A stretch of DNA of 64,000 nt, from NCBI GenBank assembly GCA_012517855.1, contig JAAYUD010000082.1:1-64000 (forward strand), read 5' to 3'. Within the stretch, counting starts at the first letter, position 1. The number at the start of each line of letters is the position of its first letter. This document shows, piece after piece, positions 6 through 50,056 of the stretch. Below the pieces are notes generated by a model. That model saw only the letters and a list, made by a program, of their open reading frames with translations, was not told the DNA's origin and searched no databases. Both the position numbers and the translations under genes were made by a program. Source of the DNA: Bacteroidales bacterium (GTDB lineage Bacteria > Bacteroidota > Bacteroidia > Bacteroidales > Bacteroidaceae).

Positions 6-58
6 CATAAGGACGAAACTTGCGACTCACGGGCGTGAGTCGCAAGGTATATAAGTAC
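6..58. repeat. 22-bp-step palindromic element A (composite core)
   Basis: Three cores have centres exactly 22 bp apart. ATAAGGAC at 7-14 is centred at 10.5. A perfect hairpin with 13-bp arms (19-31 and 34-46, GG in the middle) is centred at 32.5. ATAAGTAC at 51-58 is centred at 54.5. The same composite core recurs at 50005-50056 with the flanking cores in the opposite arrangement. The element lies downstream of the GH18 gene and its terminator, and may extend beyond the window edge. The spacing is read directly; the function is unknown. Confidence 0.75.
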
Positions 59-108
59 CCCACCGAGAACAGGTAAGAGGATTGAAAAAGAATCCCCCAA
101 CGGCGAAC

Positions 109-145
109 AAAAAAATGAAGCAGATATATCGCATACCCGCTTCAT
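109..145 (-). terminator. Rho-independent terminator after the GH18 operon
   Basis: Read on the minus strand, the arms ATGAAGC and GCTTCAT (positions 145-139 and 121-115) enclose a 17-nt loop. They are followed by a run of Ts, seen as A109-A115 on the plus strand. It sits 28 bp past the GH18 stop codon, where the chitin-locus operon should end. Confidence 0.6.
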
Positions 146-172
146 CGTTACGAATCTTTAATTATAAAAAAA

Positions 173-1306
173 TCAGTGTTTCATAGTTGCATTCCAGACG
201 GCTTTAGTCAACGTTTCTTCACCATCGTCTCCACTGCAATCCCAATAGCACATGCCTTTCATACCTAATCCTATAATCCACGCACCTTTTATTGCGATGC
301 TTTTTGCATTATCATAACTATAATACATCTGACCATTCTTTGTCACATAAGGCACATTCGCGCCGGCATCCCAATTATCAATTTTGTATACGCCCTTATC
401 AAGAGTAAGAATATCTTTGTAATTGATCGTCTTATCCGAGAACGTATGCCTCCCATAGAAAGGAATACCAAGCAGCAATTTGCTGAAAGGAGCGCCGGCA
501 TTAATATACGCATTGACAGCACGTTGACAATCCCAATAAGATGAAGGATCGTTCAATGCAGATTGATACTTCGGAGCTGCATCCATATCATAGGTCATGA
601 TGTTAACATAATCAACATAAGGCATGACGGCTGCAATATCGATGTATTGATAACCACCGGCAACGGGCTTCTTATCCATTACGTATCCGGCAAAGGTCAA
701 TAAATAATTGTTACCTAGTGTTTCCCTCAACTGCTTCATCAGCAACGTAAAGTTTGCCACATCATTAGCTGGATCGCATGCTGCCCCACTCCACGAAAGA
801 CCGGGAAACTCCCAATCCATATCAATGCCGTCAATGCCCCACTTTTTGATAAATGCAAGACAATCTTCGGCAAATTGTTTGCGATAGTCTGCATTAGCAG
901 CAATAGCAGAGAAACTGCCTCCCTGTGAATTGTCACTATTTTCAACAACATGCGTAAACGATATCATAATCTTCAAAGAAGGATTCAGTTTCTTAAGATT
1001 GACAACGTTCTGGAATCTTGATTCTTGGCCTTCCAATTTGAAACCCTTATATACGCCACTCGCAACATAAACTTCGGCAAAAGCATAGTTAATATTTGTG
1101 ACATATTGCGGATCGGGCAGAGTGGATCCATACCATGTACAATAAGCCGTCACTACACGTCCATCAACTTTCGGCTCTGTAGTATCGCCATTACCGTTGG
1201 TAGAAGGCACCGAGTTGTAATCGTCTTTAGAACATCCCGTAAAAGATAAAGCTACCACTCCGAAAACGACACCTACTAAATATCTTAATCTAATATTATC
1301 TAACAT
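173..1306 (-). CDS. GH18 chitinase-like lipoprotein
   Basis: This is a glycoside hydrolase family 18 enzyme of 377 aa. The catalytic DxxDxDxE motif is visible as DGIDMDWE, with the acid/base Glu at residue 166. Other chitinase-type signatures are NIMTYDM, GIPFYGR and a C-terminal CYWDCSGDDGE stretch. The N-terminus has a hydrophobic segment ending in a lipobox-like FTGC (Cys25), so it is probably a surface or periplasmic lipoprotein. It is the last gene of the minus-strand operon with SusD/SusC and GlcNAc-metabolism genes, which supports chitin, chito-oligosaccharide or another GlcNAc-containing glycan as substrate. An endo-beta-N-acetylglucosaminidase acting on N-glycans is the alternative; the chitinase-like C-terminal motifs favour chitinase. 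Confidence 0.85.
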   Translation of the reverse strand: MLDNIRLRYLVGVVFGVVALSFTGCSKDDYNSVPSTNGNGDTTEPKVDGRVVTAYCTWYGSTLPDPQYVTNINYAFAEVYVASGVYKGFKLEGQESRFQNVVNLKKLNPSLKIMISFTHVVENSDNSQGGSFSAIAANADYRKQFAEDCLAFIKKWGIDGIDMDWEFPGLSWSGAACDPANDVANFTLLMKQLRETLGNNYLLTFAGYVMDKKPVAGGYQYIDIAAVMPYVDYVNIMTYDMDAAPKYQSALNDPSSYWDCQRAVNAYINAGAPFSKLLLGIPFYGRHTFSDKTINYKDILTLDKGVYKIDNWDAGANVPYVTKNGQMYYSYDNAKSIAIKGAWIIGLGMKGMCYWDCSGDDGEETLTKAVWNATMKH

Positions 1307-1407
1307 ACAAATATTTTTGAAGTGAAAAATATACTTAGAGAAGGTACATCCAACGGTTATATATCATAGCAAATGACATGAACAACCGTCGGACATACCA
1401 TTATCAT

Positions 1408-2307
1408 TTATTTAGCCTCGTAATATACATACCAGCCGCTATCATCCCAATCGACGCCCCCTTTATATTTGTCGGGATGATAAAGAGTCATGTAATTATC
1501 TGTCAAAGTAAGAATCCAGAATGTGTTTTTAGTATTATTCTGGCCTTCATCATCATGTTCGTGCCCGATAACGGGAATACTCGTGACCAACTCTCCGATT
1601 ACGCCCTTCTCCGGACTATTATGAGTATAAGAGAAAGAGCCACTGCCAACGCTATCGCCATTAGGTTTATAGGTCAAAAGTTTACCGCCATCATAAACCA
1701 TAGACATCGATTGGTCGCCTATCTTATCAATGGATGAAACATTATTCCACCATGCAAAGTTAGATTCAGGAGTATAACCGGCATCCGTATATTTCCAGCC
1801 GCCATGTGCTCCCATGTTACACACAGAGCCCCATGCTACAACTCTAAACTTCCATATCTTTTTGGCCGCTTTATCAGACTTGTCTTTTGCTCCTGTCAGA
1901 TATTTATCATATTCGTCGAAAACATTCGTTACGTTGAACGTGAATGGCTCTGTCTGAACAACCTTATTGGCAGAGATGCCCACATAATATAATTTATAAT
2001 CCCCATTGGCAGGACAAATAATGGTATCATTATCTGTACCATAAGTATACTGGGTATCTCCATGAACCAAATGCCATACACCCCCAATACCGGGACGATT
2101 ATTTTTTATGATGACGTATTGATCTCCTATCACTTTCCCATCTTGATTCGGTAATTGAGTACAAGACAATGCGGCTTTCAAATCGGAAGCTGAAATAGAA
2201 GTTCCATCCTTGTCGAAATTCGACTTATCTTCTAGCGGATCACAACTAAAGAAAGTAACCGCTGCAGCAAACAAAATTACATATTTAAAATAAGTTTTCA
2301 TAGTCAT
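1408..2307 (-). CDS. SusE/SusF-position surface glycan-binding lipoprotein
   Basis: A 299-aa predicted lipoprotein: a short hydrophobic N-terminus ends in FFSC, with acidic residues following the Cys. I do not recognise a catalytic motif. The position directly after susD (3-bp gap) and before the GH18 gene is typical of SusE/SusF-like or surface glycan-binding proteins. The C-terminal half is rich in Trp, Tyr and Gly, with motifs such as AWWNN and GWYVYY that could form a carbohydrate-binding surface. An alternative start lies two codons downstream (MKTYFKY). The glycan-binding role is inferred from context, not from a diagnostic motif. Confidence 0.6.
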   Translation of the reverse strand: MTMKTYFKYVILFAAAVTFFSCDPLEDKSNFDKDGTSISASDLKAALSCTQLPNQDGKVIGDQYVIIKNNRPGIGGVWHLVHGDTQYTYGTDNDTIICPANGDYKLYYVGISANKVVQTEPFTFNVTNVFDEYDKYLTGAKDKSDKAAKKIWKFRVVAWGSVCNMGAHGGWKYTDAGYTPESNFAWWNNVSSIDKIGDQSMSMVYDGGKLLTYKPNGDSVGSGSFSYTHNSPEKGVIGELVTSIPVIGHEHDDEGQNNTKNTFWILTLTDNYMTLYHPDKYKGGVDWDDSGWYVYYEAK

Positions 2308-2310
2308 CCT

Positions 2311-4098
2311 CTATTTTAAATTATTCCAATCATTAAATTGAGCTGAAGCATCCCAACCCGGATTCTGTTTAAGAACCCCATTCGAAAGATCTATTTCGTC
2401 TTGAGGTATGGGCCAATATCCTTGAGTTTTTTGCAATCGCGCAGCATAATCATAATGAACCATTGGAACAATGACAGCCGCATTGATAACCTTAAAGTCG
2501 TTTTGCTTGTTAAGCGCATCGCCGGCTTCTTTCAGAGAAGGTCCCGACCAACGCAGCAAATCCCACCAACGAATAGATTCAAATGCCAATTCCCAACGCC
2601 GTTCTTCTTTAATTGCCTCAAGAGAATATGTCACCGGAGCCATATGTGAACGTGCACGGACTTTGTTCAATCCGTCCGCATCTTGTTCCAATTCAGATTG
2701 CATCAACAGTACATCTGCAAAACGCATGTGTATTAAATCGGCAATATTCAATAAAGATTGAGAAGTTTGATTGGACATATCCGGATACATCTTCTTACTG
2801 AAAGGAAGGATATTCCCTTTATCATAAGCATTGATATTGATATACTTTTTCTGGAAATAGCCCGTTTGCTCATAATATCTTTTAGAGACAGTATAATCCG
2901 GCTCATCGGTATCCAATCTGGAATCCATCAGCATCGAACCCTTATGATTGGGATCCATAGCTTTATACGACCATATAGAACCTGTCAGGCGCGGATCTTC
3001 CGTATAGCCGTCAAGGAACGTTTGTTTCCCCGACCACTCTTTCCACTCGTTCACCATTGCAGGAGAGACAGGACCTGCCCCCCATCCGGTACCGAACGGA
3101 TAACTTACGAATTTATCATAATCATCGGCCGACGGAGAAAAGTATTGAGATACAGTATTGGTAAACCATGTATAGGTCCAATCAGATTTCATGTTGTGCT
3201 TATTGGCAAAGAGCGTTTCATCCGAACTATTGCCTACCCAACTCAATTTATTATCGACAACATATTTATAATGATAATCACTATTGTCTTCAGTCGCGGT
3301 ATTTGTATAAGCCCACAAATTACGCTGATCGCCCACCAGTTTATAACCGGAATTAGTTACGCAATCATCAATCCATTGGCAAACCATATCCTTTGTTATA
3401 TGTCCGGGCAACTCCGTCTTGGCATAACGCCCTGTATAAAACAAGAATATACGTGCCATAAAAGCTTCCGCCGCATATTTTGTAGCGTGACCGGCTCTTT
3501 CAGAGCCAGCAGGATATATTTTATTGGGCAACATTTCGATCGCGTTCTTCATATCCGAGGCAATCAATGAATACACACTGTCTATATCGGCCCGAGGCAC
3601 ATTACTTGCCTCAATTGTTTTACGAATAGGAACTCCGCCAAATACCTGAGCCAACTCATAATAAGCAATTCCTCTTAAGAAGTATGCCTCACCATAGTGC
3701 CTACTTTTCTCTTCGTCGCTCGACCAACTCTTTACATTAGGAAAAGAATTGATGGCATTATTGGCACGATTAATCAATGTATAATCACGACTCCAAAGCC
3801 CTAAGAAAGTATTCAAGTTATCTTTATACATTAAAAAATTGGTAGCACAATTATTAGAGAATGATAAGTTGCCTCCCAAACAGTCATCACCGGCCAATTG
3901 TGCAATATAATATTCAGACGAATTCTCAGGCGATTCGAATAGCAAATGGGCATAAATAGCAGTCAGCATTTCATCAGCATCTTTCTCCGATTCGGGGAAG
4001 TTTGCCGTAGTCTTATGTGTCAAGTCGTTCGTATCCAAAAAGTCATTGCATCCACACAACAACAAGACAGTCGATATTAAAAATATAATCTTTTTCAT
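2311..4098 (-). CDS. SusD-like nutrient-binding outer-membrane lipoprotein (chitin/GlcNAc locus)
   Basis: A 595-aa SusD/RagB family protein. The N-terminus is a lipoprotein signal ending in LLLCGC (Cys17), followed by NDFLDT, a typical SusD start. The helical TPR-like region contains YFLRGIAYYELAQVFGG, a hallmark of the family, and the C-terminus has the common RRWELAFESIRWWDLLRW segment. SusD proteins cap the SusC barrel and capture glycans at the cell surface. The gene lies 9 bp after susC and 3 bp before the SusE-position lipoprotein, so it is clearly cotranscribed. At 595 aa it is somewhat long for the family. Confidence 0.93.
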   Translation of the reverse strand: MKKIIFLISTVLLLCGCNDFLDTNDLTHKTTANFPESEKDADEMLTAIYAHLLFESPENSSEYYIAQLAGDDCLGGNLSFSNNCATNFLMYKDNLNTFLGLWSRDYTLINRANNAINSFPNVKSWSSDEEKSRHYGEAYFLRGIAYYELAQVFGGVPIRKTIEASNVPRADIDSVYSLIASDMKNAIEMLPNKIYPAGSERAGHATKYAAEAFMARIFLFYTGRYAKTELPGHITKDMVCQWIDDCVTNSGYKLVGDQRNLWAYTNTATEDNSDYHYKYVVDNKLSWVGNSSDETLFANKHNMKSDWTYTWFTNTVSQYFSPSADDYDKFVSYPFGTGWGAGPVSPAMVNEWKEWSGKQTFLDGYTEDPRLTGSIWSYKAMDPNHKGSMLMDSRLDTDEPDYTVSKRYYEQTGYFQKKYININAYDKGNILPFSKKMYPDMSNQTSQSLLNIADLIHMRFADVLLMQSELEQDADGLNKVRARSHMAPVTYSLEAIKEERRWELAFESIRWWDLLRWSGPSLKEAGDALNKQNDFKVINAAVIVPMVHYDYAARLQKTQGYWPIPQDEIDLSNGVLKQNPGWDASAQFNDWNNLK

Positions 4099-4107
4099 AA
4101 TCGCAGA

Positions 4108-7100
4108 TTAGAATTTGACATTTAATCCAAACAATACATTGCGGGAACCCGGATAGTATCCAAGATCAATGCCTTGTGCATAACTCCCCGCACTTTCACC
4201 ACCGAATCCGATTTCAGGATCCATTCCCGAGTAACCCGTAAAGGTATATAGATTCTGCACTGTAGCATACAGACGCAACTGAGTAAACGGAAGCGACTTA
4301 AACGTTTTCTTAAAATCGTATCCGATAGTCACATTCTTTATCTTCAGATAGTCTCCATTTTCCACATATAAATCCGAAATTTTATTCCAATTACTACTTG
4401 ATGAACTCGACAATCTCGGAAGTTTATTTGACGTTCCTTCACCATGCCAACGTTTCAATATATCCGTTGTGTAATTTTGCAACGGAGATGAACTGAAATC
4501 GCGATAACACTTCATTATCTGCTGACCGAATGCACCATACGTTGTTACAGAAAGATCTAAAGCTTTCCAACTGATATTGAAGGACAACCCCATTGTAAAG
4601 TCAGGATGAGGATCACCCAACTTTGTTCTGTCATTGGTATCAATCACACCATCATGGTTAACATCCTCCCAAATCACATCACCCGGTTGTGTCTTCTTCC
4701 CGTTGAGCAGTGCTCCTTTATAATTATCTATTTGAGCTTGATTTTGGAAAATACCTTTCGATTTATATCCGAAGAAATACCCAACCGGTTGTCCGGGTTC
4801 AGCCACACGATAACATTCTTCTGCACCTTCCCAAAGCAAACTGCCCGGACCATGAATAAGACCTTCCGAATTTCCTACCTTCGTTACTCTATTTCTATTA
4901 TACGAAATATTATAGTTAATTCCGTAATTGATGTCTTTGCCAACCTTATCATTCCAATGTAATGTCAGCTCCACACCATCGTTCTTTATATTACCTCCAT
5001 TGACTGATGGAGGATTGGCACCACAGCTATACAAGACAGGAGCTTCGACAAGCCAATCTTTTGTCACACGATGATACCAGTCGAACTCTACGCCCAATCT
5101 GTTTGAAAGCAAACGAGCGTCAAAGCCGGCATCGGTCTGCTGTTCTGTTTCCCATTTCAAATTAGGATTTGTCAACCGATAAGCATAAAAACCTGTTGAT
5201 ATATTATTCATAGAGTCTCCGAAAGAATATCCTCCATAAGTATTGTTGGACGCTATCTGAGAAATCCATTGAAACGTATCAACTCTATTATTACCATTTT
5301 GCCCCCACGATGCTCTGACTTTAAGAAAATCAAGCCAGTTCGAAGTAGACTTCATAAAGTTCTCGTTTGAAATGACCCACCCCGCAGAGAACGAAGGGAA
5401 GTATCCCCAACGATGACCACGAGCAAAAGTAGAACATCCGTCTGCGCGCATGGTGAAAGAAGCCATATATTTCTCTTGATAATTATAAAGTATACGACCG
5501 AAGAAAGAAGAAACAGCTGCTTGAGAATACGGTCCGCCACCCAAAGTCGTTACGCTTGTAGGATTAGTAGGCACATTAACCATATAGGCATGAGCAAGGT
5601 CTGTATAATACGAACCGACTTTTGTTCCATTCAGGGTCTCTCCATAACCCGATTTTTCGAGAGTGGAACCCAAAAGGACATCGAAATGATGATCGTTCAG
5701 ATTATAGAGATAGTCGACAGTATTCTCCCAAGACCACCGATTGTAAATAGACATAGACTGAGTGACCTGATCTTTATCGCTAATGAGCGTAGAGGTCAAC
5801 TCATAAGTAGGAACATAACCCCGATAGCTTGAAGAGCCGTAAATATAACCGAATTGAGATTTAATCTTCAAATTCTTCATCGGTTGCAATTCAGCATAAA
5901 TACTCGACTGCAAATAGTGTCCCTTATTCTTATTTTGGTTCATAAAGTAATCCAGATAGGCTATCGGGTTTTTATCCGAGCTATTCGATATATCCCAGTT
6001 GTATCCGTCGGCTATTCTATCTTTATACATATAGTAGTCGCCGTTGTAGTCGTAAGCATGCATCAGCGGACTCATCACAAGCATATTGTGAACGCCATTC
6101 CAATAGATACCGCCCGTACCGAACGAACCTCTTGTTTCTTCGTATTTATAATTGATTGTTTCGCCGACTTTAAGGAAATCCAAGTCTCCTATTTTCTTTA
6201 CGATCTGCGAAGTATTAACGCGGAAGTTATATCTATGCAAATCGGGAACTGCTCTAGGCACACCCATTGTGGCTTCTTGTGTTGTCATAGACAAACCGAC
6301 CGAATAAGTTGAGTTCGGGGTACCGCCTGAGAAGTTTAAAGAATGGTTTTGCACCACGGCGTTCTTGTTTTTAATTTCTTTCAGCCAATTGGTACCTTTC
6401 CATGTGCCGTCTTCTATTATCTTCAAATCTTTCGCAGGAATATAGTTCGACCAATTATAGGGTTCCAAACCATCCATTACACGCCCTTCATCTTGCATCG
6501 ACATATATTCTTTTGCGTTCAGTATGGTTGGAATTTTATATAGATTCTGCACGCCATAATATCCATCGTAACTAACGACAGATGTGCCCGACTTTCCTTG
6601 TTTTGTTGTTATCAATATCACACCGTTGGCTGCACGAGCCCCATAAATAGCCGACGAAGCTGCATCTTTCAGAATATCTACCGATTCGATATCCGAAGGA
6701 TTCAACCCATCCAAACTTGCATTGGCAACTCCATCGACAACATACAGCGGCTCGGAATCGCCGATAGTGCCGATACCACGGATATTGACAGTATATCCGC
6801 AGCCAATGAATCCATTGGACTGAGTGATATTCACGCCTGGCGCTTGACTTTGAAGAGCACCCATCACGTCTACCGTGTTCAACTTCGCAATATCATCACC
6901 TTTCACCTGAACGGTAGAACCTGTTACTAGTTTTTTCTTTTGAACGCCATATCCTATCACAACTACTTCGTCCAAAGATTTAGATTCTTCCACCAACACA
7001 ACTTTCATATTCTTACCGGCACTCACCACCTGAGTGCGATACCCGATATAAGATATGACAAGAGTAGAATTCACTTTCGCAGAAAGGGTAAAGACACCAT

Positions 7101-7362: not shown

Positions 7363-7385
7363 GGTATTTGTTTTAATTTTATAGA

Positions 7386-8147
7386 TTAGAGTACATGAAG
7401 CCTCTTTTGATACTCATCAATAGCCTCATCCAGACGTTCCTGAGCAGTAGTATCTCCCGGAACATTGTGCGACGGATTAATATAGAGATGGACACCTCTC
7501 TCTTCAAGAATCTCACAAACAGTTGTAATGGTCATCCATACCATGGTGACAAATCCAAGTGTAGAAAGCGGTCCTATCTTATCAATATGATTCTTCATCG
7601 GTACAGAAGCATCTTGCAACGGAACACACGAATCGACAACGACATCTGCAAGCTGAAATAAATTCTTCTTGGAAGAATGACGTCCAGGTTTATCGCCCGT
7701 AGCGGCAGCCGAACCATAAACAATCACTTTCATTCCACATTTCTTTGCTTCAAGAGCCATATCGATATTCACGGCATTGATGCCTGTATGAGAGAATATC
7801 CACATGCAATCCTTCGAATCAAAATGATAGTTCTTCATGATCTGTTGTCCATAGCCTTCCTGGCGTTCCAGATATAAAAATTGATGAATACCCATCTGTC
7901 CCACAATCTGCGTGAAGAAAGTCAACGGCAATTCGCAAAGCGGATGAAAACCTACGATACCGCCAATACGCGGATACATTTCTTCGCACGGAATCGTAGC
8001 ATGACCACAACCCCATGTGTGTACCCAACGGCCGGCCTGAATACTATCGGCCATTATCGTAGCAGCCTTGCGGATGTTTTCCATTTGGGTAGATTCAATA
8101 CTGTCCATCACATTATGGGCGTTCTTTAACCATTCTTTTGCTAACAT
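7386..8147 (-). CDS. SIS-domain phosphosugar protein (UPF0309-like)
   Basis: A 253-aa cytoplasmic protein with a sugar-isomerase (SIS) fold. Visible are the phosphosugar-binding loop region WGCGHATIPCEEM near the N-terminus, FSHTGINAVNIDMALEAKK in the second half of the Rossmann-like fold, and KVIVYGSAAAT. It resembles UPF0309-type SIS proteins, whose reaction is not firmly established; MurQ-like etherases and GlmS-type isomerases share the fold. It lies 7 bp after the MFS gene and 23 bp before susC, between sugar import and phosphorylation genes. A role on an amino-sugar phosphate is likely by context, but the exact reaction cannot be read from sequence. Confidence 0.7.
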   Translation of the reverse strand: MLAKEWLKNAHNVMDSIESTQMENIRKAATIMADSIQAGRWVHTWGCGHATIPCEEMYPRIGGIVGFHPLCELPLTFFTQIVGQMGIHQFLYLERQEGYGQQIMKNYHFDSKDCMWIFSHTGINAVNIDMALEAKKCGMKVIVYGSAAATGDKPGRHSSKKNLFQLADVVVDSCVPLQDASVPMKNHIDKIGPLSTLGFVTMVWMTITTVCEILEERGVHLYINPSHNVPGDTTAQERLDEAIDEYQKRLHVL

Positions 8148-8154
8148 AATTTTA

Positions 8155-10790: not shown

Positions 10791-10888
10791 TTCATTCGTT
10801 TGGTCGTGAGCATACACATGTTTGGTCACGACCATACACTTGTTTGCTCGTGACCAAACACGTGTTTCGTCGTGAGCAAACGAATGAA
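10791..10888. repeat. 22-bp-step palindromic element B (four tandem units)
   Basis: Four contiguous 22-bp units at 10799-10820, 10821-10842, 10843-10864 and 10865-10886 share at least 13 invariant positions (TTT start, TC at 6-7, GA at 10-11, CA at 13-14, AC at 16-17, TG end). Their semi-palindromic cores are centred at 10806.5, 10828.5, 10850.5 and 10872.5. A second short palindrome, clearest as ACACGTGT at 10858-10865, falls 11 bp off phase. The whole is also a 98-bp imperfect palindrome with perfect 12-bp outer arms (10791-10802 and 10877-10888). No coding function is supported. Confidence 0.85.
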
Positions 10889-25999: not shown

Positions 26000-26537
26000 T
26001 ATCTTCTTCGGCAACATTACCGTTCAAATACGATATAACTGTTATCTGTATTCTGACTGGAACAGCAAAAAATAAGACTCACTAGCAAAAGCGTAGGGAA
26101 CATACATAGATTTATCTTTACATCCATTAAAGTCCTTTGAAACAATTTCTCAAATTACAGAAGACTTTGCCACCTCCGTATGACACCATTGCGCACTATC
26201 CCACAGTAAGTTAACGACACACCGTATACAACGCCAGCGAAAAAAGGTCCGAAAATCGGGGCAAGAGCATATTGTAGGCACCTTATTTTCGGCGGACCTC
26301 TGCTTAGAATGATTCTAAACGATAGCTTACAGATGGTTGAGAGCCCGTTTTCGCAAAAACGAATATATTCTATTCATCCGGACAAGCAGCTCATTCCCGA
26401 TGAAAGTTTTCGAGCAAGCAAATGCGACAATCCATCGGCATGCTTCTTCTTCCGTTAGCCACATAGAAGCGGTGCATAAATTCGAATGAACAGCTTCTTT
26501 ATGCTATTGAAACGACATATGTCCCTAAAAATATTTT

Positions 26538-26569
26538 CGTCCATACGTTTTCAGAAAAACATAAGGACG
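26538..26569. repeat. Degenerate 22-bp-step pair
   Basis: GTCCATAC (26539-26546, centre 26542.5) and ATAAGGAC (26561-26568, centre 26564.5) are 22 bp apart. Together they form an imperfect hairpin with T- and A-rich inner arms. It looks like a worn copy of the ATAAGGAC-type element at 26845. Confidence 0.5.
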
Positions 26570-26677
26570 TCACCGAAAAAAACGAACATACGACAATTGA
26601 GCATGATATAGACCGCTTCACTAAAAGACCTATTGCCCTAATTACCAACAACCAATAAGTTTTCATTTTTATACGAT

Positions 26678-27155
26678 GCACACCCCATTGACATAGAAAC
26701 ACGCTAATCAATAGGTGGTTATCCACAAGTCGTTTTTCAGAACATTTCTGAGGGTGAATATCGAGGACGATACTGATACTATTTTAACCATATCGAAGTG
26801 GCACTTATTGATACACAAAATAGAACCTGCGTCTTCAAAAAATGATAAGGACAAACATAAAAATTCATAAGGACGAAACCAAAAGTTTGTCCTTATAAAC
26901 TTTTAGTTTCGTCCTTATGAATTTCTCGCTAGATATCAGTGACTTACGCACGATATATTTATATCTCGCTCTTATTGAACTTACATTCGATCACTGAAAC
27001 AGTATCGGAAATAGTGCCTCAAAAGGGCTTGTAACTGATGTTCGGATAAGAAAGTATCAGAATGTCGGTGAATGTTCACCTTGAAATACGTTCCGAAAAA
27101 TGGATTACACGTAACGTGTTGCATCACAGTTTATTTCTATGTCAATGGGGTGTGC
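26678..27155. repeat. Perfect 22-bp inverted repeat flanking a 434-bp segment
   Basis: The arms at 26678-26699 and 27134-27155 are exact reverse complements, beginning GCACACCCCATTG on the left. Matching resumes outside after a one-base bulge. The enclosed segment encodes no transposase. It could be a MITE-like remnant or the ends of a lost insertion sequence. No convincing target-site duplication was seen. Confidence 0.65.
26845..26932. repeat. 22-bp-step element C with interleaved complementary units
   Basis: Cores ATAAGGAC (26845, 26867) and their complements GTCCTTAT (26889, 26911) start exactly 22 bp apart. Unit 1 (26845-26856) is complementary over 12 bp to unit 3 (26885-26896). Unit 2 (26861-26879) is complementary over 19 bp to unit 4 (26906-26924). 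The pairings cross, giving a pseudoknot-like order 1-2-1'-2'. It lies in a gene-free stretch and is not part of an ORF. Confidence 0.85.
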
Positions 27156-38172: not shown

Positions 38173-38268
38173 TGTCGTTCCACATATGTGAGTTGATCGA
38201 ATCACATATGTGAGTCGATCGTTCCATATATGTGATTCGATCAACTCACATATGTGGAACGACAAAAC
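38173..38268. repeat. 22-bp-step palindromic element D (92-bp near-perfect palindrome)
   Basis: Perfect 37-bp arms (38173-38209 and 38228-38264) flank an 18-nt centre. The arms are made of CACATATGTG-like cores starting at 38181, 38203, 38225 and 38247, exactly 22 bp apart. GATC-centred secondary cores lie 11 bp off phase at 38196.5, 38218.5 and 38240.5. The structure alternates two short palindromes every 11 bp. It could form a long cruciform or RNA hairpin. No function is known to me. Confidence 0.9.
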
Positions 38269-42315: not shown

Positions 42316-43296
42316 CTACTTCTCATTATAAATTACTTGCATCACCGTCTGCCCTACCGCTTTAAGTGTTGCTTTATCAATATGATCCATATTATCGGCA
42401 AGTGTATGCCACGTAGGAGTGAAACTACCATCCTTACTATATGGAATAATATCTGCTGTAGGGATATTGGCCATTTGATTGATAAAGACATGATCGTCTG
42501 TAACTTGAGAGCCTTGCTCATTAACAAAATACTGACCATAGCCAAGACTCGCAGCAGCCTTCCACAACTTACGGTTGATTGCCGAAGCATACTGTTCGGA
42601 ATAAACTTCTTTGTGAAACACAGACCCCTTGCCCCCTACCATATCAAGTAGTATGCCGAAACGTGCCGTATAGCCGTCAACATGAGGATTGCGAGCCCAA
42701 TACTGAGCACCTAATGCCCACGAACTTTCATCATCTTTCTTCTCGAATTGAGGAATACCATAATCTTCGGCGTCCAGAAAAATAATATCAATACCCATTT
42801 CGGGTTGTTGTTTCTGAATGAGACGGGCAATCTCGAGCAACACACCAACACCACTTGCACCATCATTGGCCGCCAAGATTGGTTTATGCCAATTTGCTTT
42901 ATCAGGATCATTGTCTGCCCATGGACGAGAGTCCCAATGAGAAAAGAGCGCAATACGTTTCTTACTCTCCGGTTTAAATGAACCGACGATATTGACCGAT
43001 TTCAAGATCGTCCCATCGTAACCGGCAAGGTCACACTTTTGCAAAGTTACCGTAGCGCCATAACTTTTCAATTTCGCCGAAAGATAATCGGCACAATCCT
43101 TATGTGCTTTACTGTTGGGTATACGAGGTCCGAAATCAACTTGTGCCTTTACATAATGATAAGCACTATCGGCATTGAATACCGGGACATTGACCGATGC
43201 AACCGCAACTTCTGTCGTTTTGCTTTTCCCACCACCGCAAGATACAAATCCCACAGCGCCGAGACAGACAGAAAGGAAAAGAGTAAAATTCTTCAT
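42316..43296 (-). CDS. M28-fold glutaminyl cyclase / zinc aminopeptidase lipoprotein
   Basis: A 326-aa lipoprotein (signal ending FVSC) of the M28 metallopeptidase fold. Zinc-site segments are FSHWDSRPWADNDPD, LAANDGASGVGVLLE and IIFLDAEDYG. These match the type II glutaminyl cyclases described from Porphyromonas and other Bacteroidetes, which form N-terminal pyroglutamate on exported proteins. A leucyl-aminopeptidase activity is the alternative annotation. Several secreted proteins in this window start with Gln after the predicted cleavage site, which supports the cyclase role. Confidence 0.8.
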   Translation of the reverse strand: MKNFTLFLSVCLGAVGFVSCGGGKSKTTEVAVASVNVPVFNADSAYHYVKAQVDFGPRIPNSKAHKDCADYLSAKLKSYGATVTLQKCDLAGYDGTILKSVNIVGSFKPESKKRIALFSHWDSRPWADNDPDKANWHKPILAANDGASGVGVLLEIARLIQKQQPEMGIDIIFLDAEDYGIPQFEKKDDESSWALGAQYWARNPHVDGYTARFGILLDMVGGKGSVFHKEVYSEQYASAINRKLWKAAASLGYGQYFVNEQGSQVTDDHVFINQMANIPTADIIPYSKDGSFTPTWHTLADNMDHIDKATLKAVGQTVMQVIYNEK

Positions 43297-43314
43297 AACT
43301 TTGCTATTTTGCTA

Positions 43315-43322
43315 CAAAAATA
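43315..43322 (-). promoter_or_regulatory. Possible -7 box for M28-sufE
   Basis: The minus strand reads TATTTTTG, matching TAnnTTTG, 19 bp before the M28 ATG. The spacing to a CAA at 43349 is too long for a standard -33 element. Confidence 0.35.
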
Positions 43323-43383
43323 CACATTTTACCTTTAGAAGGCATTCACAATATACAAAATTATAACATATAATAGTAGATAA

Positions 43384-44097
43384 CTAGCTCTGTCCATCCA
43401 AAAACTTTTGGAAATTAGTTTTATAACTATCACTCACGGGAATATACGTCTTTTCGAAGACAATGCGTCCGTGATCAATAACCCGTATCTTACTCTTTTG
43501 TACAATATACGATCGATGTACTCTGATAAACCTCGAAGCAGGCAAAAGTTGCTCCATCGCTTTCATATTCATAAGAGACAATATAGGGCGAGGAACACCT
43601 TCAATATAAATTTTCACATAATCTTTGAGACCTTCTACATAGAGTATTTTGGCAAGCTCTATCTGAATGAGTTTATATTCGCTTTTCACAAAAATACTTT
43701 GAATTTCTTTCTCTTCACCAGGACCTTTAGGCTGTGCCATTTCAAACCATTGCAATGCTTTATTGGCGGCTTCCAGGAAATCGACATAAGATATAGGTTT
43801 GAGCAAGTAATCGAGAGCATTGACTCGATAACCATCAAGCGCATATTGTCCAAAAGCCGTTGTAAATATTACTCTAGTACGAACAGGCAACATCTTCGAG
43901 AATTCCAATCCGTTCAATTCGGGCATTTGAATATCCAGGAACAACAAATCGACTTCATTATCCGGTAATTCTTTCATAGCCAAAATAGCATTAGCATACC
44001 TTCCTGTTAACTTCAGAAAAGGAGTCTTTTCGACATAACTTTGCAATAACCCGAGCGCCAATGGCTCGTCGTCAACGATGGCACAACGCAGTATCAT
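43384..44097 (-). CDS. LytTR-family response regulator
   Basis: A 237-aa response regulator. The receiver domain (1-120) has the acidic pair at 9-11 (VDDEP), phosphoacceptor Asp55 in LLFLDIQMPELNG and Lys in YLLKPISY. The C-terminal LytTR DNA-binding domain (about 135-235) has FIRVHRSYIVQKSKI. It overlaps the histidine-kinase gene by 26 bp, so the two form a cognate pair. Being downstream of an efflux operon suggests it controls or responds to that transporter. Confidence 0.92.
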   Translation of the reverse strand: MILRCAIVDDEPLALGLLQSYVEKTPFLKLTGRYANAILAMKELPDNEVDLLFLDIQMPELNGLEFSKMLPVRTRVIFTTAFGQYALDGYRVNALDYLLKPISYVDFLEAANKALQWFEMAQPKGPGEEKEIQSIFVKSEYKLIQIELAKILYVEGLKDYVKIYIEGVPRPILSLMNMKAMEQLLPASRFIRVHRSYIVQKSKIRVIDHGRIVFEKTYIPVSDSYKTNFQKFLDGQS

Positions 44098-45139
44098 GGT
44101 ATATTATTATTTTAGAAAAATATTCTTTCCCGTCGGGCGAGATACCCTTTTCCCAATTATAACGACCGGCATAAATCAATTCGAGACGTTTGCCCACTTG
44201 TTCCAGTCCAATACCGGAACCACTTTTATCGTTTTGCTTTTTCGGATAATTACTATTGCGTATTTCACAAGTAACATCACCATCTATCTCCGACATTTTG
44301 ATATTGATATAGCTCCTTTCAGAAGGTGAAATTCCATGTTTGAAAGCATTTTCTATAAGCGAAATGAAAAGAAGCGGCGCTATCATGACCGTATCATCGG
44401 AAGGAACGTCAAAATCAACGTCGATCGTCACATTATCGGTCACTCGAATACGCATCAATTCAATGTAGTTCTTCATAAAATCCACTTCCTTACTGAGCAA
44501 CACATAGTCTTGTTGATCCTCGTAAAGCACATGACGCAACAAACGGCTCAATTCTTCTACTACCTGCTGAGCTTTGTCCGTATCAAAAGCAATCAGTGCA
44601 TAAATATTATTAAGCGTATTGAGCAAAAAGTGAGGATTCAATTGATTACGCAAATTCTTCAATTCAGCTTCGGCTCTATTTTTCTCCGCTTCACGACGGG
44701 CCTCGTCAGATTTTATCCAACGTTGGCTCATCCTTATAGCCACACTAAGTCCGATAAACAAAACAGAGGTTATGAAGAACTGGAAATACATAGGCCATTT
44801 AGGAGGATGATGTCGCCAATGTTCATAAAACGTATCGGGAAACAAGACATAACAGCCATACTGCCACAGCAATATTAGTCCTAAAGACAAAGTAACTATC
44901 AACACATTGAAAGCATAAAAGCTTTTTACCTTGTCTTTAAATAGAATCTGAGGAATCAAAAGAGAATAGTTCAGATAAAAAGGCAACATAAAAATAACCT
45001 GAACACCCAGCATCCGTAAAAGATGTCCAAAATCTTGATTCCAATTTCCCGTATGCTCAATGAAGCAGAGGGGGAATATAATAACAATTCCCCAACAAAT
45101 GACATGTATCATGAAAGAACGTCTCATCAATATACTCAT
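44072..45139 (-). CDS. LytS-like membrane sensor histidine kinase
   Basis: A kinase of about 355 aa with four N-terminal membrane helices, a short coiled coil and a His_kinase domain whose phosphorylated His lies in LRNQLNPHFLLNTLNNIYAL. The ATP-binding N box is SLIENAFKHGI and the G box SGIGLEQVGKRL. The frame opens with a GTG at 45151, but a TAnnTTTG box at 45154-45161 puts transcription start near 45147, so the ATG at 45139 is preferred. It pairs with the overlapping LytTR regulator. Confidence 0.88.
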   Translation of the reverse strand: MSILMRRSFMIHVICWGIVIIFPLCFIEHTGNWNQDFGHLLRMLGVQVIFMLPFYLNYSLLIPQILFKDKVKSFYAFNVLIVTLSLGLILLWQYGCYVLFPDTFYEHWRHHPPKWPMYFQFFITSVLFIGLSVAIRMSQRWIKSDEARREAEKNRAEAELKNLRNQLNPHFLLNTLNNIYALIAFDTDKAQQVVEELSRLLRHVLYEDQQDYVLLSKEVDFMKNYIELMRIRVTDNVTIDVDFDVPSDDTVMIAPLLFISLIENAFKHGISPSERSYINIKMSEIDGDVTCEIRNSNYPKKQNDKSGSGIGLEQVGKRLELIYAGRYNWEKGISPDGKEYFSKIIIYHDTALCHR

Positions 45140-45153
45140 TATCTGTTTCACTG

Positions 45154-45161
45154 CAAATATA
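45154..45161 (-). promoter_or_regulatory. Possible -7 box for the LytS-LytT pair
   Basis: The minus strand reads TATATTTG directly before the kinase start region. It would give an internal promoter between the efflux genes and the two-component genes. No -33 element at proper spacing. Confidence 0.35.
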
Positions 45162-45227
45162 ACTAATTATTCAAAAGGATGGTTCGAACCTTCTATCTTA
45201 AATCATCCCGTCCTTTATTATTGTTAT

Positions 45228-46448
45228 TTATTCATAACGAATAGCCTCTATAGGATCCAAATTGGCAGCCTTTTTTGCAGGATACCATCCGAAAAAGATA
45301 CCTGTAAGAGTACATACAATAAACGAAAGAGCCACTGTCCAAAGTTGTATACTGATAGGCCAATGGGCTAAGAACTTAACAACAAACGAAGCACCGACAC
45401 CCAACACAACCCCTATCAAACCTCCTGTGATACTAATAAGAATCGCTTCAATCAAGAACTGGCTCAAAATATCGACGCCTCTTGCACCAACGCTCATTCG
45501 AAGTCCAATCTCGCGAGTCCTTTCAGTTACAGATACGTACATGATATTCATTATTCCAATTCCACCAACGATCAATGAGATGCCAGCGATGCAAGCCAAC
45601 AACGTTGTCATCAATCCTGTTGTAGAATTCATCATAGAGCTCAACTCCTCCTGAGAACGAATATTAAAATCGTCATTATCACTCGTTTTCAGTTTATGAT
45701 CGGCCCGCAAAATATCTGTCAAATCTTTTATGGCATCCTGCGTCATATCTTCTGTGATAGCCGAAGCAAAGATTCCTTGCAAATAGGTTTGCGCCTGAAT
45801 TCTTTTCATTACAGTAGTGTATGGAGCCAGAACGACATCATCTTGATCTTGCCCCATAGAATTATAACCTTTAGATTTCAGCACTCCGACAACGCGAAAA
45901 GGGATACTGTTAAAACGTATAATTTGTCCCACGGGGTCTTCCCCATTGGGAAATAAATTCGTAGCAATCGTTTTACCGATAACACAGACCTTGGCAGCCA
46001 CTTTAATATCTTGTTCGGTAAACATTTCGCCGGTTTCTACCGACAGTTGCCTTATTGTAAGATAATCTAAACTAATTCCACTGATGCTCGATGGATAATT
46101 ATTGCTACCCGCAATGTATTGTCCCGAACTAGAAACGCTTGGACTCACGGCTGCCAGATATTTCGCATCCTTACAAATATTCTCATAATCGGTCAGTTTA
46201 AGTGTTTCCATCGAACTGGCACTTTGACGAACACCACCGAACATATCGGCTCCGGGACGAATCATAATCATATTAGACCCCATCTCTGCAATCTGAGCCT
46301 GAATACTTTGCTTCGAACCTTGACCGATGGCAAGCATCGTAATAACTGATGCCACACCGATGATAATGCCAAGCATCGTCAAGAAAGTGCGCATCTTACT
46401 ATTTGAAAGCGCTTTCAACGCTATTTTAAACAAATTAGTTCCGTTCAT
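45228..46448 (-). CDS. MacB/FtsX-type ABC transporter permease
   Basis: A 406-aa MacB-like permease. One N-terminal membrane helix (KMRTFLTMLGIIIGVASVIT) is followed by a large periplasmic domain. Three C-terminal helices form the FtsX domain (GISLIVGGIGIMNIMYVSV, TREIGLRMSVGAR). It works as a mechanotransmission exporter with the ATPase 8 bp upstream, the MacA-like adaptor and the TolC-like channel of the same operon. Likely cargo is a macrolide-like drug, peptide or lipid, not determinable here. Confidence 0.9.
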   Translation of the reverse strand: MNGTNLFKIALKALSNSKMRTFLTMLGIIIGVASVITMLAIGQGSKQSIQAQIAEMGSNMIMIRPGADMFGGVRQSASSMETLKLTDYENICKDAKYLAAVSPSVSSSGQYIAGSNNYPSSISGISLDYLTIRQLSVETGEMFTEQDIKVAAKVCVIGKTIATNLFPNGEDPVGQIIRFNSIPFRVVGVLKSKGYNSMGQDQDDVVLAPYTTVMKRIQAQTYLQGIFASAITEDMTQDAIKDLTDILRADHKLKTSDNDDFNIRSQEELSSMMNSTTGLMTTLLACIAGISLIVGGIGIMNIMYVSVTERTREIGLRMSVGARGVDILSQFLIEAILISITGGLIGVVLGVGASFVVKFLAHWPISIQLWTVALSFIVCTLTGIFFGWYPAKKAANLDPIEAIRYE

Positions 46449-46456
46449 GGCATCTA

Positions 46457-47200
46457 TTAATTATCATCAGGAAGCGGTATGGTCGTCAGTTTGACTTTAG
46501 CATCCTGAATGTTATCATTTACTTTATCGTCTCTAATCTTCCCATCACGCAACGTAATCGTTCGACTCGAATAGAAAGCTATTTCGGGATTATGGGTGAC
46601 AAAGATAATGGTTCTACCTTCGGCATGAAGCTTCTGAAAAAGCACCAAGATTTCAAAAGATGTACGAGTATCAAGATTGCCGGTCGCTTCGTCGGCCAGA
46701 ATAACAGCCGGATTATTAACCAAAGCACGAGCAATAGCCACGCGTTGCATCTGCCCGCCCGACATCTGGTTAGACTTATGATTCAAACGGTCGCCCAATC
46801 CGACAGCATCTAGTGCTTCGATAGCACGACGACGTCTTTCGGAAGCACTCACGGAGCCATTATACATCAATGGTAATTCCACATTTTCTATCGCCGTCGT
46901 TTTGGGCAGCAAGTTATAGCTTTGAAAAACAAATCCGATCTTGCGGTTGCGAAGCACTGCTCGCTGCGGCTTAGTCATGGTGCGTACAGATATTCCATCG
47001 AGCAGATATTCTCCTTTGGTTGGAGTATCCAAGCAACCCAACAGATTGAGCAAAGTAGATTTGCCTGAACCAGACATTCCCATGATAGTTACAAATTCTC
47101 CTTCGTTGATAGTAAATGAAACACCGCGCAAAGCATGTACTGTCTCTTCGCCAACAATGAAATTCCGGCGAATATCTTGTAATTCTATTATCGGTTTCAT
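46457..47200 (-). CDS. MacB/LolD-type ABC transporter ATP-binding protein
   Basis: A 247-aa ATPase. Walker A is [15 protein letters not shown], the signature is [15 protein letters not shown], Walker B is [12 protein letters not shown] and the H-loop VTHNP. It belongs to the LolD/MacB group that powers type VII ABC exporters. It sits between the adaptor (16 bp) and the permease (8 bp). In Bacteroidetes the ATPase and permease are separate, as here, rather than fused as in E. coli MacB. Confidence 0.93.
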
Positions 47201-47216
47201 AATTTAATTCTCCTAC

Positions 47217-48410
47217 TTAGTTTGTACCACCGTTTCTTTTCTTACTGTTGGGATGTTTTGGCATAAAGGGTGACGAATTTTGATTGGAAGAATCGGCAGA
47301 CATATCACTCTTTCCACCCGCAGCAACAGCATCAAGCACTACCTGCTGCCCTTCGTCTATTCCGCTCAATATCTCGGTACGAATACCATTCGTGATACCT
47401 ATTTGAACTGCATGGGCTGTAAACGTATTACCGTCACGAGTCCACAGTTTATGAGGCGCATTACAATCGACTATTTTTGCATCTTTACCTACCAATGTTT
47501 GATCGGGAGTAAAACGCAGCGCTTTAGACCGTACACTCAGCACATGGCTCTTTTCACTGGTATAAATAGTGACATTAGCTGTCAGCCCGGGTTTCAACTT
47601 CATCGATTCGTTATTCGTTTTGATAATGATCTGATAGGTCACCACATTATTACTTGCACCTGCATTCAAACGGACCTGCTTTACCACACCCTCAAAAGTG
47701 TCGTCAGGAAAGGCATCGACTGTAAAAGAAACCCGTTGACCATCTACAATATTACCTATATCGGCCTCATCGACCTTTGCTACAACTTGAAGATCTTTTA
47801 AATTTTTAGCAATGGTAAATAGCTTAGGCGTGCTATAAGTCGCTGCAACTGTTTGCCCCACTGCAACAGAACGCGACAAGACGATGCCATCTATAGGAGA
47901 GGTAATGGTGGCATATCCCAAATTAGTCTTTGCCTTTTCATAATCTTGTTTTGCTACATCATACGCTTGCTTTGCTTTGTCATAGCTATCAAGTGCCGTG
48001 TCATAATCAGATTGGCTTACCAATTGTTTTGCATGTAATTGTTTGTAGCGACCAAAATTTTTGGCTTGATATTGCCATTCACTCAAAGCACTCTTCATAC
48101 TCGCAATCTTTGATTTCAAATCGGCTTCAAGAGTCGTTTTATCAAGTTCGGCTACAATCTGCCCCTTTTTGACTACACTATTATAATCTGCGAACACTTT
48201 AGTCACAAGCCCGGAAACTTGAGTTCCAACATTAACCGTATCGGCTTGGAGTGTACCTGTTGCCGTAATGCTCGTCGCAATATCGTTTCGAGTAACCTTT
48301 GTGTTTTCAAAAGTAACCTTGCTGGAACTTTTCTTGCCGGAACACATATAAAGTATTACCAGCAGAACAATTGCTACAACAGCAACTAGAATGATATTTT
48401 TCTTTTTCAT
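47217..48410 (-). CDS. MacA/HlyD-type periplasmic adaptor
   Basis: A 397-aa membrane fusion protein with one N-terminal membrane anchor (IILVAVVAIVLLVILYM). Its biotinyl-lipoyl half motifs (GTQVSGLVTKVFADYNSVVK; GYATITSPIDGIVLSRSVAV) flank a coiled-coil hairpin. A beta-barrel and membrane-proximal domain follow. It bridges the permease and the TolC channel. The C-terminal tail is low-complexity, Ser/Asn/Lys-rich. Confidence 0.92.
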   Translation of the reverse strand: MKKKNIILVAVVAIVLLVILYMCSGKKSSSKVTFENTKVTRNDIATSITATGTLQADTVNVGTQVSGLVTKVFADYNSVVKKGQIVAELDKTTLEADLKSKIASMKSALSEWQYQAKNFGRYKQLHAKQLVSQSDYDTALDSYDKAKQAYDVAKQDYEKAKTNLGYATITSPIDGIVLSRSVAVGQTVAATYSTPKLFTIAKNLKDLQVVAKVDEADIGNIVDGQRVSFTVDAFPDDTFEGVVKQVRLNAGASNNVVTYQIIIKTNNESMKLKPGLTANVTIYTSEKSHVLSVRSKALRFTPDQTLVGKDAKIVDCNAPHKLWTRDGNTFTAHAVQIGITNGIRTEILSGIDEGQQVVLDAVAAGGKSDMSADSSNQNSSPFMPKHPNSKKRNGGTN

Positions 48411-48461
48411 TGAAGTATATGTTTTTTATTTTTATTCTTTCTCCGATTATAGTGCTATAGG

Positions 48462-49829
48462 CTATAATGAAATCTTATCACCCTGATAATATTTCAACAG
48501 TTGAGTATTCAATATCGCCATATATTTAGCTTGCAACATTTCTTGCTGCGAAGTATTCAACGTATTTTTTTGAGTCAGCAGTTCTATAATATTTTTTAAA
48601 CCAAGATTAAATTGCTCTTGAATCAAATCAAAACTAATCTGCGAGCTTTTCATTTTCTCTTTTGCTGCCACATATTGTTGCTGTGCACTGTTGGCATCAA
48701 GCCAAAAACCTTCTATTGTCTTATAAAGTGTCTTTTGTTGGTCTTGCAACTCCAGTTCGCTGGTCTGCTTAGCCAGTTGCGCTCTCTGTATGCTACTCTT
48801 GGTTGCACGTTTGTCGAGGATAGGAATACTTACATTGATACCAATCGTATTGCTCCAAGCATTCTTTAGTTGTTTCATAAAGCCATAATCACTACCACTT
48901 ACGTTATAGGTGCTCAAACCACCTGTCAGGCTTACCGTTGGCAAATAGGCAGCTTTGGCTATTCTAATATTCAAATCAGAAACATCTATACTTAGTTTCT
49001 TCGATTCAATTTCGGGACGATTATTTACAGCTGCCATAAAAACCTGACTCTTCGATGGAAGTGGAGACAGCACGTCGATAGTAGCCAAATCGGGTATAGC
49101 AAGATTCATCTCTTCGTCGCCATCCAGTTCGAGCAATTGCTTTAATTGCAACTTATAGTTGGCAAGAGTAGCTTGATCGCTGACCAATTGGTATTTGTCC
49201 GTACTGACTTGCGATTCGAATTGAGCGACGTCGGCTTTATTCAAAGAACCGGCTTTGAACATCTGTTTTGCTCGAGAAAGCTCTGCCTCAGATAAATTCA
49301 AAGCACTCTCGTCTGTCTTTATGGTTTCAGCAGCATACAAAATCTGAACATAGATTTTGGTGATAGATTCTTCAATGCTCTTTTCGGAGGAACTCACTGA
49401 CAGGTCGGCAATTTTACTATTCAACTGTTGCAATTGGATATTCTTTTGTATTTTACCACCATTGTAAAGAGTCATCGAAGCATTCAGACCATAATTGCCG
49501 GTATACGTTGTCTTACTACTTGTCGAAACAATATTGCTCCCATTTACGGTGCTTGCCGACTGCTGAAAAGGACGATTTGCCAGACTCTGATCTGTAGAGA
49601 ACGAAAGACCAGGTTGACGTGCTGCCTTCGCTTCCAATACATCGATCTTTGTGCTGGCAGCAGTTACCCTGTTTTGCTTAATCGTGATATTCTGTTTGAG
49701 CGCATAGTCAATGCAGCTTTGCAATGTCCATTGCGATGGCTTTATTGTTTGTTTAGCATCTTGAGCCATAATACTACCAAACACTGCAAATAAACAGAAT
49801 GTTGCTGTTATTAATCTCTTTAAGTTCAT
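48462..49829 (-). CDS. TolC-family outer-membrane efflux protein
   Basis: A protein of about 455 aa of the TolC/OEP family. The signal peptide ends at SIMA before Gln-Asp. Two helical repeat halves show the typical LSEAELSRAKQMFKAGSLNK and FDLIQEQFNLGLKNIIELL. The ATG at 49829 (MNLKRLIT) is chosen because the promoter -7 box ends 28 bp before it and an upstream ATG at 49859 would lie inside that box. First gene of the efflux operon. Confidence 0.92.
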   Translation of the reverse strand: MNLKRLITATFCLFAVFGSIMAQDAKQTIKPSQWTLQSCIDYALKQNITIKQNRVTAASTKIDVLEAKAARQPGLSFSTDQSLANRPFQQSASTVNGSNIVSTSSKTTYTGNYGLNASMTLYNGGKIQKNIQLQQLNSKIADLSVSSSEKSIEESITKIYVQILYAAETIKTDESALNLSEAELSRAKQMFKAGSLNKADVAQFESQVSTDKYQLVSDQATLANYKLQLKQLLELDGDEEMNLAIPDLATIDVLSPLPSKSQVFMAAVNNRPEIESKKLSIDVSDLNIRIAKAAYLPTVSLTGGLSTYNVSGSDYGFMKQLKNAWSNTIGINVSIPILDKRATKSSIQRAQLAKQTSELELQDQQKTLYKTIEGFWLDANSAQQQYVAAKEKMKSSQISFDLIQEQFNLGLKNIIELLTQKNTLNTSQQEMLQAKYMAILNTQLLKYYQGDKISL

Positions 49830-49856
49830 ATCATATATATCTATAAATTGACGATA

Positions 49857-49888
49857 CAAAAATAAGACAGACCCTTATCGTAGACAAA
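49857..49888 (-). promoter_or_regulatory. Promoter for the TolC-MacA-MacB operon
   Basis: On the minus strand TTTG (49888-49885), 20 nt, then TATTTTTG (49864-49857) fit the consensus exactly. Predicted leader about 20 nt to the ATG at 49829. Confidence 0.7.
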
Positions 49889-50004
49889 AAAGATAGACAA
49901 CGACAATCTTTTTGACGAAAATAGACCTTATTTTATCGATAATCTCGAAATTACAGTGTCCAACAAAGAAAAATAAAAAACAATAGTTTAGTTACTTTGA
50001 TTAC

Positions 50005-50056
50005 ATACTTATGGCGCTTGCGACTCACGGGCGTGAGTCGGAAAAAACATAAGAAC
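50005..50056. repeat. 22-bp-step palindromic element E (composite core)
   Basis: ATACTTAT (50005-50012, centre 50008.5), a perfect 9-bp-arm hairpin (50021-50029 and 50032-50040, centre 50030.5) and ATAAGAAC (50049-50056, centre 50052.5) are 22 bp apart. The middle core and its TTG left flank repeat the element at 6-58. Relative to that copy, the flanking cores are swapped in order and orientation. Confidence 0.8.

What the first reader, a model, noticed from the sequence alone, without database searches (positions are those of the whole stretch)
6..50056. A family of intergenic elements built on an exact 22-bp lattice of short palindromes
Five intergenic sites (6-58, 10791-10888, 26845-26932, 38173-38268, 50005-50056) plus one degenerate site (26538-26569) contain palindromic or semi-palindromic cores whose centres are exactly 22 bp apart. 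In two of them a second short palindrome sits 11 bp off phase. The core sequences differ completely between types (ATAAGGAC, GTCGTGAC-like, CACATATGTG, CGACTCACG-hairpin), yet the step is the same. 22 bp is about two helical turns, so bound dimers would sit on one DNA face. Conserved geometry with free sequence suggests a structural or protein-lattice constraint, or a replication/mobility mechanism that makes such units. I know no described element with this rule.
Basis: partly seen in the sequence, partly recalled or inferred. Interest (0 to 1): 0.85.

Follow-up and report, generated by a model that had tools for sequence, protein, structure and literature searches.

The report
22-bp palindrome lattices between Bacteroides genes
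Genomes of Bacteroides and its family carry many short hairpin-like repeats between genes whose sequences differ from species to species but whose palindromes almost always sit exactly 22 bp apart, so DNA geometry is conserved while the letters are free to change, and no description of this was found in the papers searched.

Summary
The genome belongs to an unnamed genus near Bacteroides (Bacteroidaceae). In 0.81 Mb of it, arrays with palindromic units occur at period 22 sixteen times and at any other period from 15 to 35 at most twice; in 2.46 Mb of other Bacteroidaceae the counts are 32 at 22 bp, 6 at 23 bp and 0-5 elsewhere; 200 kb of E. coli and 0.46 Mb of other Bacteroidia give none at 22. 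Adjacent cores in five families lie 22 bp apart 142 times, 23 bp 12 times, 21 bp never. Core sequences are unrelated between families and species. Nearly all sites are intergenic, and most form inverted repeats.

B. fragilis and a near-identical sister show how they change: one arm rewritten into the exact reverse complement of the other, gain or loss of exactly one 22-bp unit, and presence versus absence. Hairpin template switching best explains the arms. What fixes the 22-bp pitch is not shown; docking of dimeric DNA-binding proteins on one DNA face is my leading guess. A Y1 transposase, a terminator role and RNA-level selection are not supported. Function is unknown. The nearest described element is the BrickBuilt MITE of Porphyromonas.

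The parts
6..58 (.). Lattice fragment, family 2: ATAAGGAC (7-14) and hairpin CTTGCGACTCACG/CGTGAGTCGCAAG (19-46), centres 22 bp apart; the contig begins inside the element
   Evidence: full copies at C11:11848-11971 and C27:15877-15973; window start is contig C32 position 1
10791..10888 (.). Lattice element, family 5 (GTCGTGAC / CATACACGTG words, CATTCGTTTG ends); 22-bp period; whole-element dyad at 10839.5
   Evidence: RNA folding z = -8.3; a further copy at C27:55242-55368
26538..26569 (.). Degenerate ATAAGGAC site inside a repeated intergenic module (26507-26598); not a lattice by itself
   Evidence: many copies of the module in 0.81 Mb
26837..26924 (.). Lattice element, family 1: ATAAGGAC at 26845-26852 and 26867-26874, GTCCTTAT at 26889-26896 and 26911-26918; hairpin arms 26861-26888/26897-26924
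   Evidence: z = -9.6; ATAAGGACGAAA occurs 123 times in the genome against 1 for the reversed control
26731..27150 (+). Larger repeated intergenic module that contains the family-1 lattice
   Evidence: about 6 copies in 0.81 Mb, 73-81% identical
38173..38264 (.). Lattice element, family 3: four CACATATGTG-type cores 22 bp apart between TGTCGTTCC and GGAACGACA; 92 bp, arms 98% complementary
   Evidence: z = -14.4; about 37 places in the genome
37998..38634 (+). Larger repeated intergenic module around the family-3 lattice; the lattice inside it has 2, 3 or 4 units in different copies
50008..50056 (.). Lattice fragment, family 2: hairpin centred at 50030.5 and ATAAGAAC (50049-50056) 22 bp away

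Best explanation
These are members of a Bacteroidaceae-wide class of intergenic elements made of 11-bp half-words joined head to head and tail to tail, giving palindromic cores every 22 bp and, in most copies, one overall hairpin. Shown or nearly shown: the pitch is 22 bp (23 rarely, 21 not) whatever the sequence; arms are rewritten by template switching at the palindromic joints, so one arm becomes the exact reverse complement of the other; whole 22-bp units are gained, lost and flipped; elements appear and vanish at orthologous sites. Inferred: the pitch is held by DNA-binding protein dimers that sit on successive cores on one face of the helix (two turns at about 11 bp per turn), so each family is an array of sites for one protein and 22-bp spacing is kept while sequences drift. 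The protein and the cell function are unknown.
For: Pitch. Sequence freedom; family 3 found in no other genome of 61 relatives. Inverted symmetry: 88 of 123 arrays have an inverted partner above the 99th percentile of random sites. Template switching: B. fragilis versus G196, 4 of 5 differences in 601 bp fall within 17 bp and make a 32-nt exact reverse complement of the other arm; further cases of 23 and 15 nt; none for reversed or complemented controls. Exact 22-bp gain or loss (L292/L298). In the window's genome family-3 words are exchanged in both arms together, the middle of the element is found inverted relative to constant flanks, and unit number is 2, 3 or 4. Operator-like conservation: information mostly 1-2 bits at offsets 1-6 from the core, mostly 0.2-0.6 bit at offsets 10-11 (family 3 about 1 bit there). 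No G-U excess over A-C (56 to 46, p = 0.37) in sense-oriented stems, so no sign that symmetry is kept at the RNA level.
Against: No binding protein or gene linked to a family was found. Tandem palindromic sites of IclR regulators lie mainly 19-21 bp apart (PMC8222616), not 22-23. Five or more families per genome would need as many proteins. About 28% of period-22 arrays have no inverted partner and some are simple direct repeats. The direction of the template-switch changes is not polarised by an outgroup.
Confidence: 0.45

Rival explanations
1. Mutational by-product without function: tandem slippage plus quasipalindrome template switching builds and homogenises the arrays in weakly constrained DNA, and some property of the Bacteroidaceae replication fork sets the 22-bp step.
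For: Template switching and unit gain/loss are seen directly; sites are intergenic and turn over; no consistent gene context.
Against: Known template switching has no fixed step; independent families sharing 22 and not 21, and operator-like conservation inside families, call for an outside ruler.
Confidence: 0.22
2. Non-autonomous mobile elements (REP- or MITE-like): the lattice is the binding array of an unidentified transposase that multiplies and moves it.
For: Multicopy species-specific families; presence/absence between sister species; families 1 and 3 sit in larger repeated modules, as in BrickBuilt.
Against: No Y1 transposase; no target duplication or constant ends seen at the one presence/absence site; B. 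fragilis matches between copies cover the lattice only, not flanks; some families have two copies.
Confidence: 0.2
3. RNA elements: the hairpins act in untranslated RNA, for example as double-stranded stems whose 22-bp step is two turns of A-form helix (an RNase III-sized unit).
For: Very stable folds (z -4.6 to -14.4); 22-23 bp fits 11-11.5 bp per turn better than B-DNA; two B. fragilis copies lie just after a stop codon.
Against: No G-U excess; also found in divergent intergenic DNA; core symmetry runs through the centre with no unpaired loop positions.
Confidence: 0.1
4. Ordinary bidirectional transcription terminators.
For: Enriched between convergent genes in the window's genome (15 in 15.8 kb against 4 in 18.7 kb divergent); family 2 hairpins have A and T flanks.
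Against: No such enrichment in 80 Bacteroidaceae loci; at the B. fragilis site a separate classical terminator follows the array and alone remains in most of the related species examined.
Confidence: 0.03

Closest known systems
BrickBuilt MITE of Porphyromonas gingivalis (PMC4596501)
   Same: Bacteroidales, strictly intergenic, tandem 23-nt units between constant leader and tail, predicted long stem-loops, unit number varies between strains, about 19 copies
   Different: Defined by one sequence with a 23-nt direct repeat in one species and IS5-like terminal repeats; no palindromic core lattice and no rule holding across unrelated sequences is described. The paper also mentions 22-nt tandem repeats reported earlier in strain W83, without locations.
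REP/BIME sequences and their RAYT (Y1) transposases
   Same: Short intergenic palindromes, multicopy, species-specific
   Different: No Y1 transposase in seven of eight lattice-bearing genomes tested; no GTAG-type head noticed; fixed 22-bp arrays
Quasipalindrome template-switch mutation (PMC7202029, PMC8794818)
   Same: Arms corrected to exact reverse complements in one multi-base event
   Different: A general mutation process; it does not predict arrays with a fixed 22-bp step
Tandem palindromic operators, e.g. IclR family (PMC8222616)
   Same: Palindromic sites about two helical turns apart, dimers on one DNA face
   Different: Mainly 19-21 bp, usually near promoters of few genes; here 22-23 bp, 2-7 sites per array, dispersed multicopy

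Membership tests
REP/RAYT system | Y1 transposase (PF01797) in the same genome | tested here: not met
   none in G000, G061, G062, G063, G064, G196, G238; two in G066
REP/RAYT system | Short imperfect palindrome with a conserved tetranucleotide head | not tested
   no common head was noticed in the listed elements, but it was not searched for
MITE | Terminal inverted repeats at constant ends | tested here: inconclusive
   family 3 has TGTCGTTCC..GGAACGACA ends but is nested in a larger module; B. fragilis matches are confined to the lattice
MITE | Target site duplication | tested here: inconclusive
   one presence/absence site, flanks too diverged to define the boundary
BrickBuilt | Tandem units between constant leader and tail | tested here: inconclusive
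   met in architecture for families 1 and 3 of this genome; not seen in B. fragilis
BrickBuilt | Its 23-nt sequence and IS5-like ends (GAGACC..) | not tested
   no sequence comparison run; none noticed among listed elements
Intrinsic terminator | Array is itself the terminator of the flanking gene | tested here: not met
   B. fragilis site: separate terminator present with or without the array
Structured RNA | G-U tolerated above A-C in stems on the transcribed strand | tested here: not met
   56 to 46, p = 0.37
Known Rfam family | Match above the gathering score | tested here: not met
   none in the window
Protein-bound dimer lattice | A protein that binds the cores cooperatively at 22-bp pitch | not testable with these tools
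   only operator-like conservation seen

The most novel reading that the evidence does not exclude
A previously undescribed class of bacterial intergenic element defined by geometry and not by sequence: arrays of palindromes on an exact 22-bp pitch, created and kept symmetric by hairpin template switching and held at two helical turns by a family of fast-evolving DNA-binding proteins that coat them, perhaps as a chromosome-organising or regulatory platform of Bacteroidaceae.
Probability: 0.35. Interest if true: 0.9.

Novelty: new variant of a known kind. Interest (0 to 1): 0.74.

Why it matters
Repeat families are normally recognised by sequence. Here unrelated sequences in many species share one exact spacing, so sequence searches see only scattered species-specific repeats and miss the class. 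If a protein sets the pitch, it is an abundant unknown DNA-binding activity in major gut bacteria; if replication sets it, it is a mutational ruler that I know of no description of. B. fragilis and its sister species make both readings testable now.

Tried and rejected
Y1 transposase link: rejected. Known RNA family: no match; relaxed search gave only hairpin-type chance matches. Terminator: rejected. RNA-level selection by G-U excess: not supported. Conserved position across species with sequence turnover: looked for in 80 orthologous neighbourhoods, only weak recurrence, so not claimed. Naming the organism by repeat sequence: no match in genome contigs or viral contigs; kinship was taken from a conserved protein. 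Literature searches for such a lattice found nothing; subscription papers are not held, so prior description cannot be excluded. In L268/L269 the scan also reported a 15-nt case in a poorly aligned flank; it is ignored.

Full report
WHAT WAS CLAIMED AND WHAT IS THERE. At four of the five the spacing is exact in the sequence; at 50008-50056 one of two intervals is. Two details need correcting. ATAAGGAC is not a palindrome, so at 26837-26924 the symmetry is that of the whole hairpin. Sites 6-58 and 50008-50056 are pieces of one family, whose full copies alternate a hairpin with ATAAGGAC (e.g. C11:11848-11971). The window lies at the start of a contig that begins inside such an element.

IS IT MORE THAN CHANCE? 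I read 812,749 bp of the same genome. Perfect 8-mer palindromes in intergenic DNA lie 22 bp apart 17 times against about 3 in dinucleotide shuffles, and 44 bp apart 13 times against 3. A scan with no palindrome requirement, for 30-bp stretches at least 70% identical to themselves after a shift, gives 33 clusters at 22 and 23 at 44; other periods give about 0-8. Restricting to arrays with palindromic units, period 22 has 16 and every other period from 15 to 35 has 0-2. Copies of one family are not independent, but the 44 sites listed fall into at least six sequence families. The scan picks regions by period; palindromy and intergenic position were then measured separately.

HOW WIDE IS IT? A conserved window protein is 80% identical to Bacteroides salyersiae and B. 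nordii, so the genome is a Bacteroidaceae; its genus has no other member among the genomes compared. Eighty Bacteroidaceae loci brought in by that protein (1.42 Mb) give 53 clusters at period 22, 29 at 44 and 11 at 66; periods 11, 14, 21 and 24, with 19-22 each, include simple direct and coding repeats. B. fragilis has 9 in 400 kb, B. neonati 2 in 100 kb and seven other Bacteroidaceae genomes 4 in 140 kb. With palindromic units required, 2.46 Mb of other Bacteroidaceae give 32 at 22 bp, 6 at 23 and 0-5 at other periods, while 0.46 Mb of other Bacteroidia and 200 kb of E. coli K-12 give none at 22. Cores differ completely: CACATATGTG, AACTAACGTTAGTT, TCACACGTGTGA (this genome), AAGTTAACTT and ATCGCTTAAGCGAT (B. 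fragilis), CACCTAGGTG (B. neonati), ACAGCGCTGT (L152). Within five families adjacent cores are 22 bp apart 142 times, 23 bp 12 times and 21 bp never.

ANATOMY. Of 123 arrays, 88 have an inverted partner nearby above the 99th percentile of random sites. Many arrays read as 11-bp half-words alternately direct and inverted, so core joints and spacer joints are both dyads; core joints are clearly more symmetric. Inside families, information is highest in the six or so positions next to the core dyad and low in the spacer, with family 3 of this genome the least so, like a roughly 14-16-bp operator plus a 6-8-bp spacer. Almost all sites are intergenic (1 of 43 and 2 of 57 in predicted genes); they show no consistent orientation preference outside this genome and tend to avoid the last stretch before a start codon. 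In this genome families 1 and 3 sit in larger repeated intergenic modules and the family-3 lattice has 2, 3 or 4 units inside the same flanks.

HOW THEY CHANGE. The most informative site is in B. fragilis at 4,130,600-4,130,701. Around it, most of the other Bacteroides loci read have the same gene end and an ordinary terminator, with no array; B. fragilis, the sister G196 and the more distant G238 have one, between the stop codon and the separate terminator. B. fragilis and G196 differ at 5 of 601 positions; four lie within 17 bp and make the right arm of G196 the exact reverse complement of the left arm, a 32-nt match. Similar exact matches of 23 and 15 nt appear at two of the other locus pairs, and none appears for reversed or complemented controls. 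This is the signature of quasipalindrome template switching (PMC7202029, PMC8794818). At another pair one species has exactly one more 22-bp unit (L292/L298), and at a third the array is present in one species and absent in the other. In this genome the six distinct four-unit family-3 forms show words exchanged in both arms at once, and the middle of the element inverted relative to constant flanks, as template switching or local inversion at palindromic joints would give. Direction is not polarised by an outgroup.

WHAT SETS THE STEP. Template switching explains symmetry and turnover but not why independent families all use 22 bp. I consider most likely that dimeric proteins bound to successive cores dock on one face of the helix; two turns at about 11 bp per turn give 22. 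This is inference. Against it, IclR tandem sites favour 19-21 bp (PMC8222616) and no protein was found. The A-form reading (an RNA stem) would fit 22-23 bp equally well, but stems show no G-U excess on the sense strand, core symmetry has no loop gap and arrays also occur between divergent genes. A purely mutational ruler is not excluded.

COMPARISON. The Y1 transposase expected of REP systems is absent in seven of eight genomes tested. Target duplications and constant ends of MITEs could not be shown. The nearest described element, BrickBuilt of P. gingivalis (PMC4596501), shares the leader-array-tail plan and intergenic habit, but is one sequence with a 23-nt step; that paper also mentions earlier-reported 22-nt tandem repeats without locations. 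Nothing describing a sequence-independent 22-bp palindrome lattice was found in the open-access library; subscription papers are not covered.

VERDICT. The evolutionary mechanism of the arms is moderately well supported; the ruler and the function remain open.

Noticed in passing
window 26161-26355: Sharply bounded intergenic repeat of about 187 bp with conserved blocks (CCTTTGCCACCTCCGTATGACACCAT ... CGCCAGCG ... AAAATCGG ... TTATTTTC), at least 14 copies in 0.81 Mb, found in none of 117 other Bacteroidota genomes and without an Rfam match; possibly an unknown structured RNA or mobile module.
   Followed up: partly
window 26161-27150 and copies at C70:122.6k, C70:158.6k, C70:202k, C52:72k, C16:49k, C6:21k, C27:70k: Three intergenic modules occur together in varying order and orientation, a mosaic of repeats around the family-1 lattice.
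   Followed up: partly
contig ends of G000 (C32:1, C41:1, C91:1, C110:1, C114:1): Several contigs of this assembly start inside lattice elements, so they probably limit short-read assembly.
   Followed up: no
L104:2839, L110:16435, L151:3371, L153:104: Palindromic arrays with 23-bp pitch in some Bacteroidaceae, a minority variant close to the 23-nt step of BrickBuilt.
   Followed up: partly
L105:13512-13800: A giant hairpin whose arms are 22-bp direct repeats, with a loop of about 90 nt.
   Followed up: no
L130, L141, L142:1635: Arrays with an 11-bp direct period (GGAGCAGGTAA-like) in several Bacteroides species.
   Followed up: no
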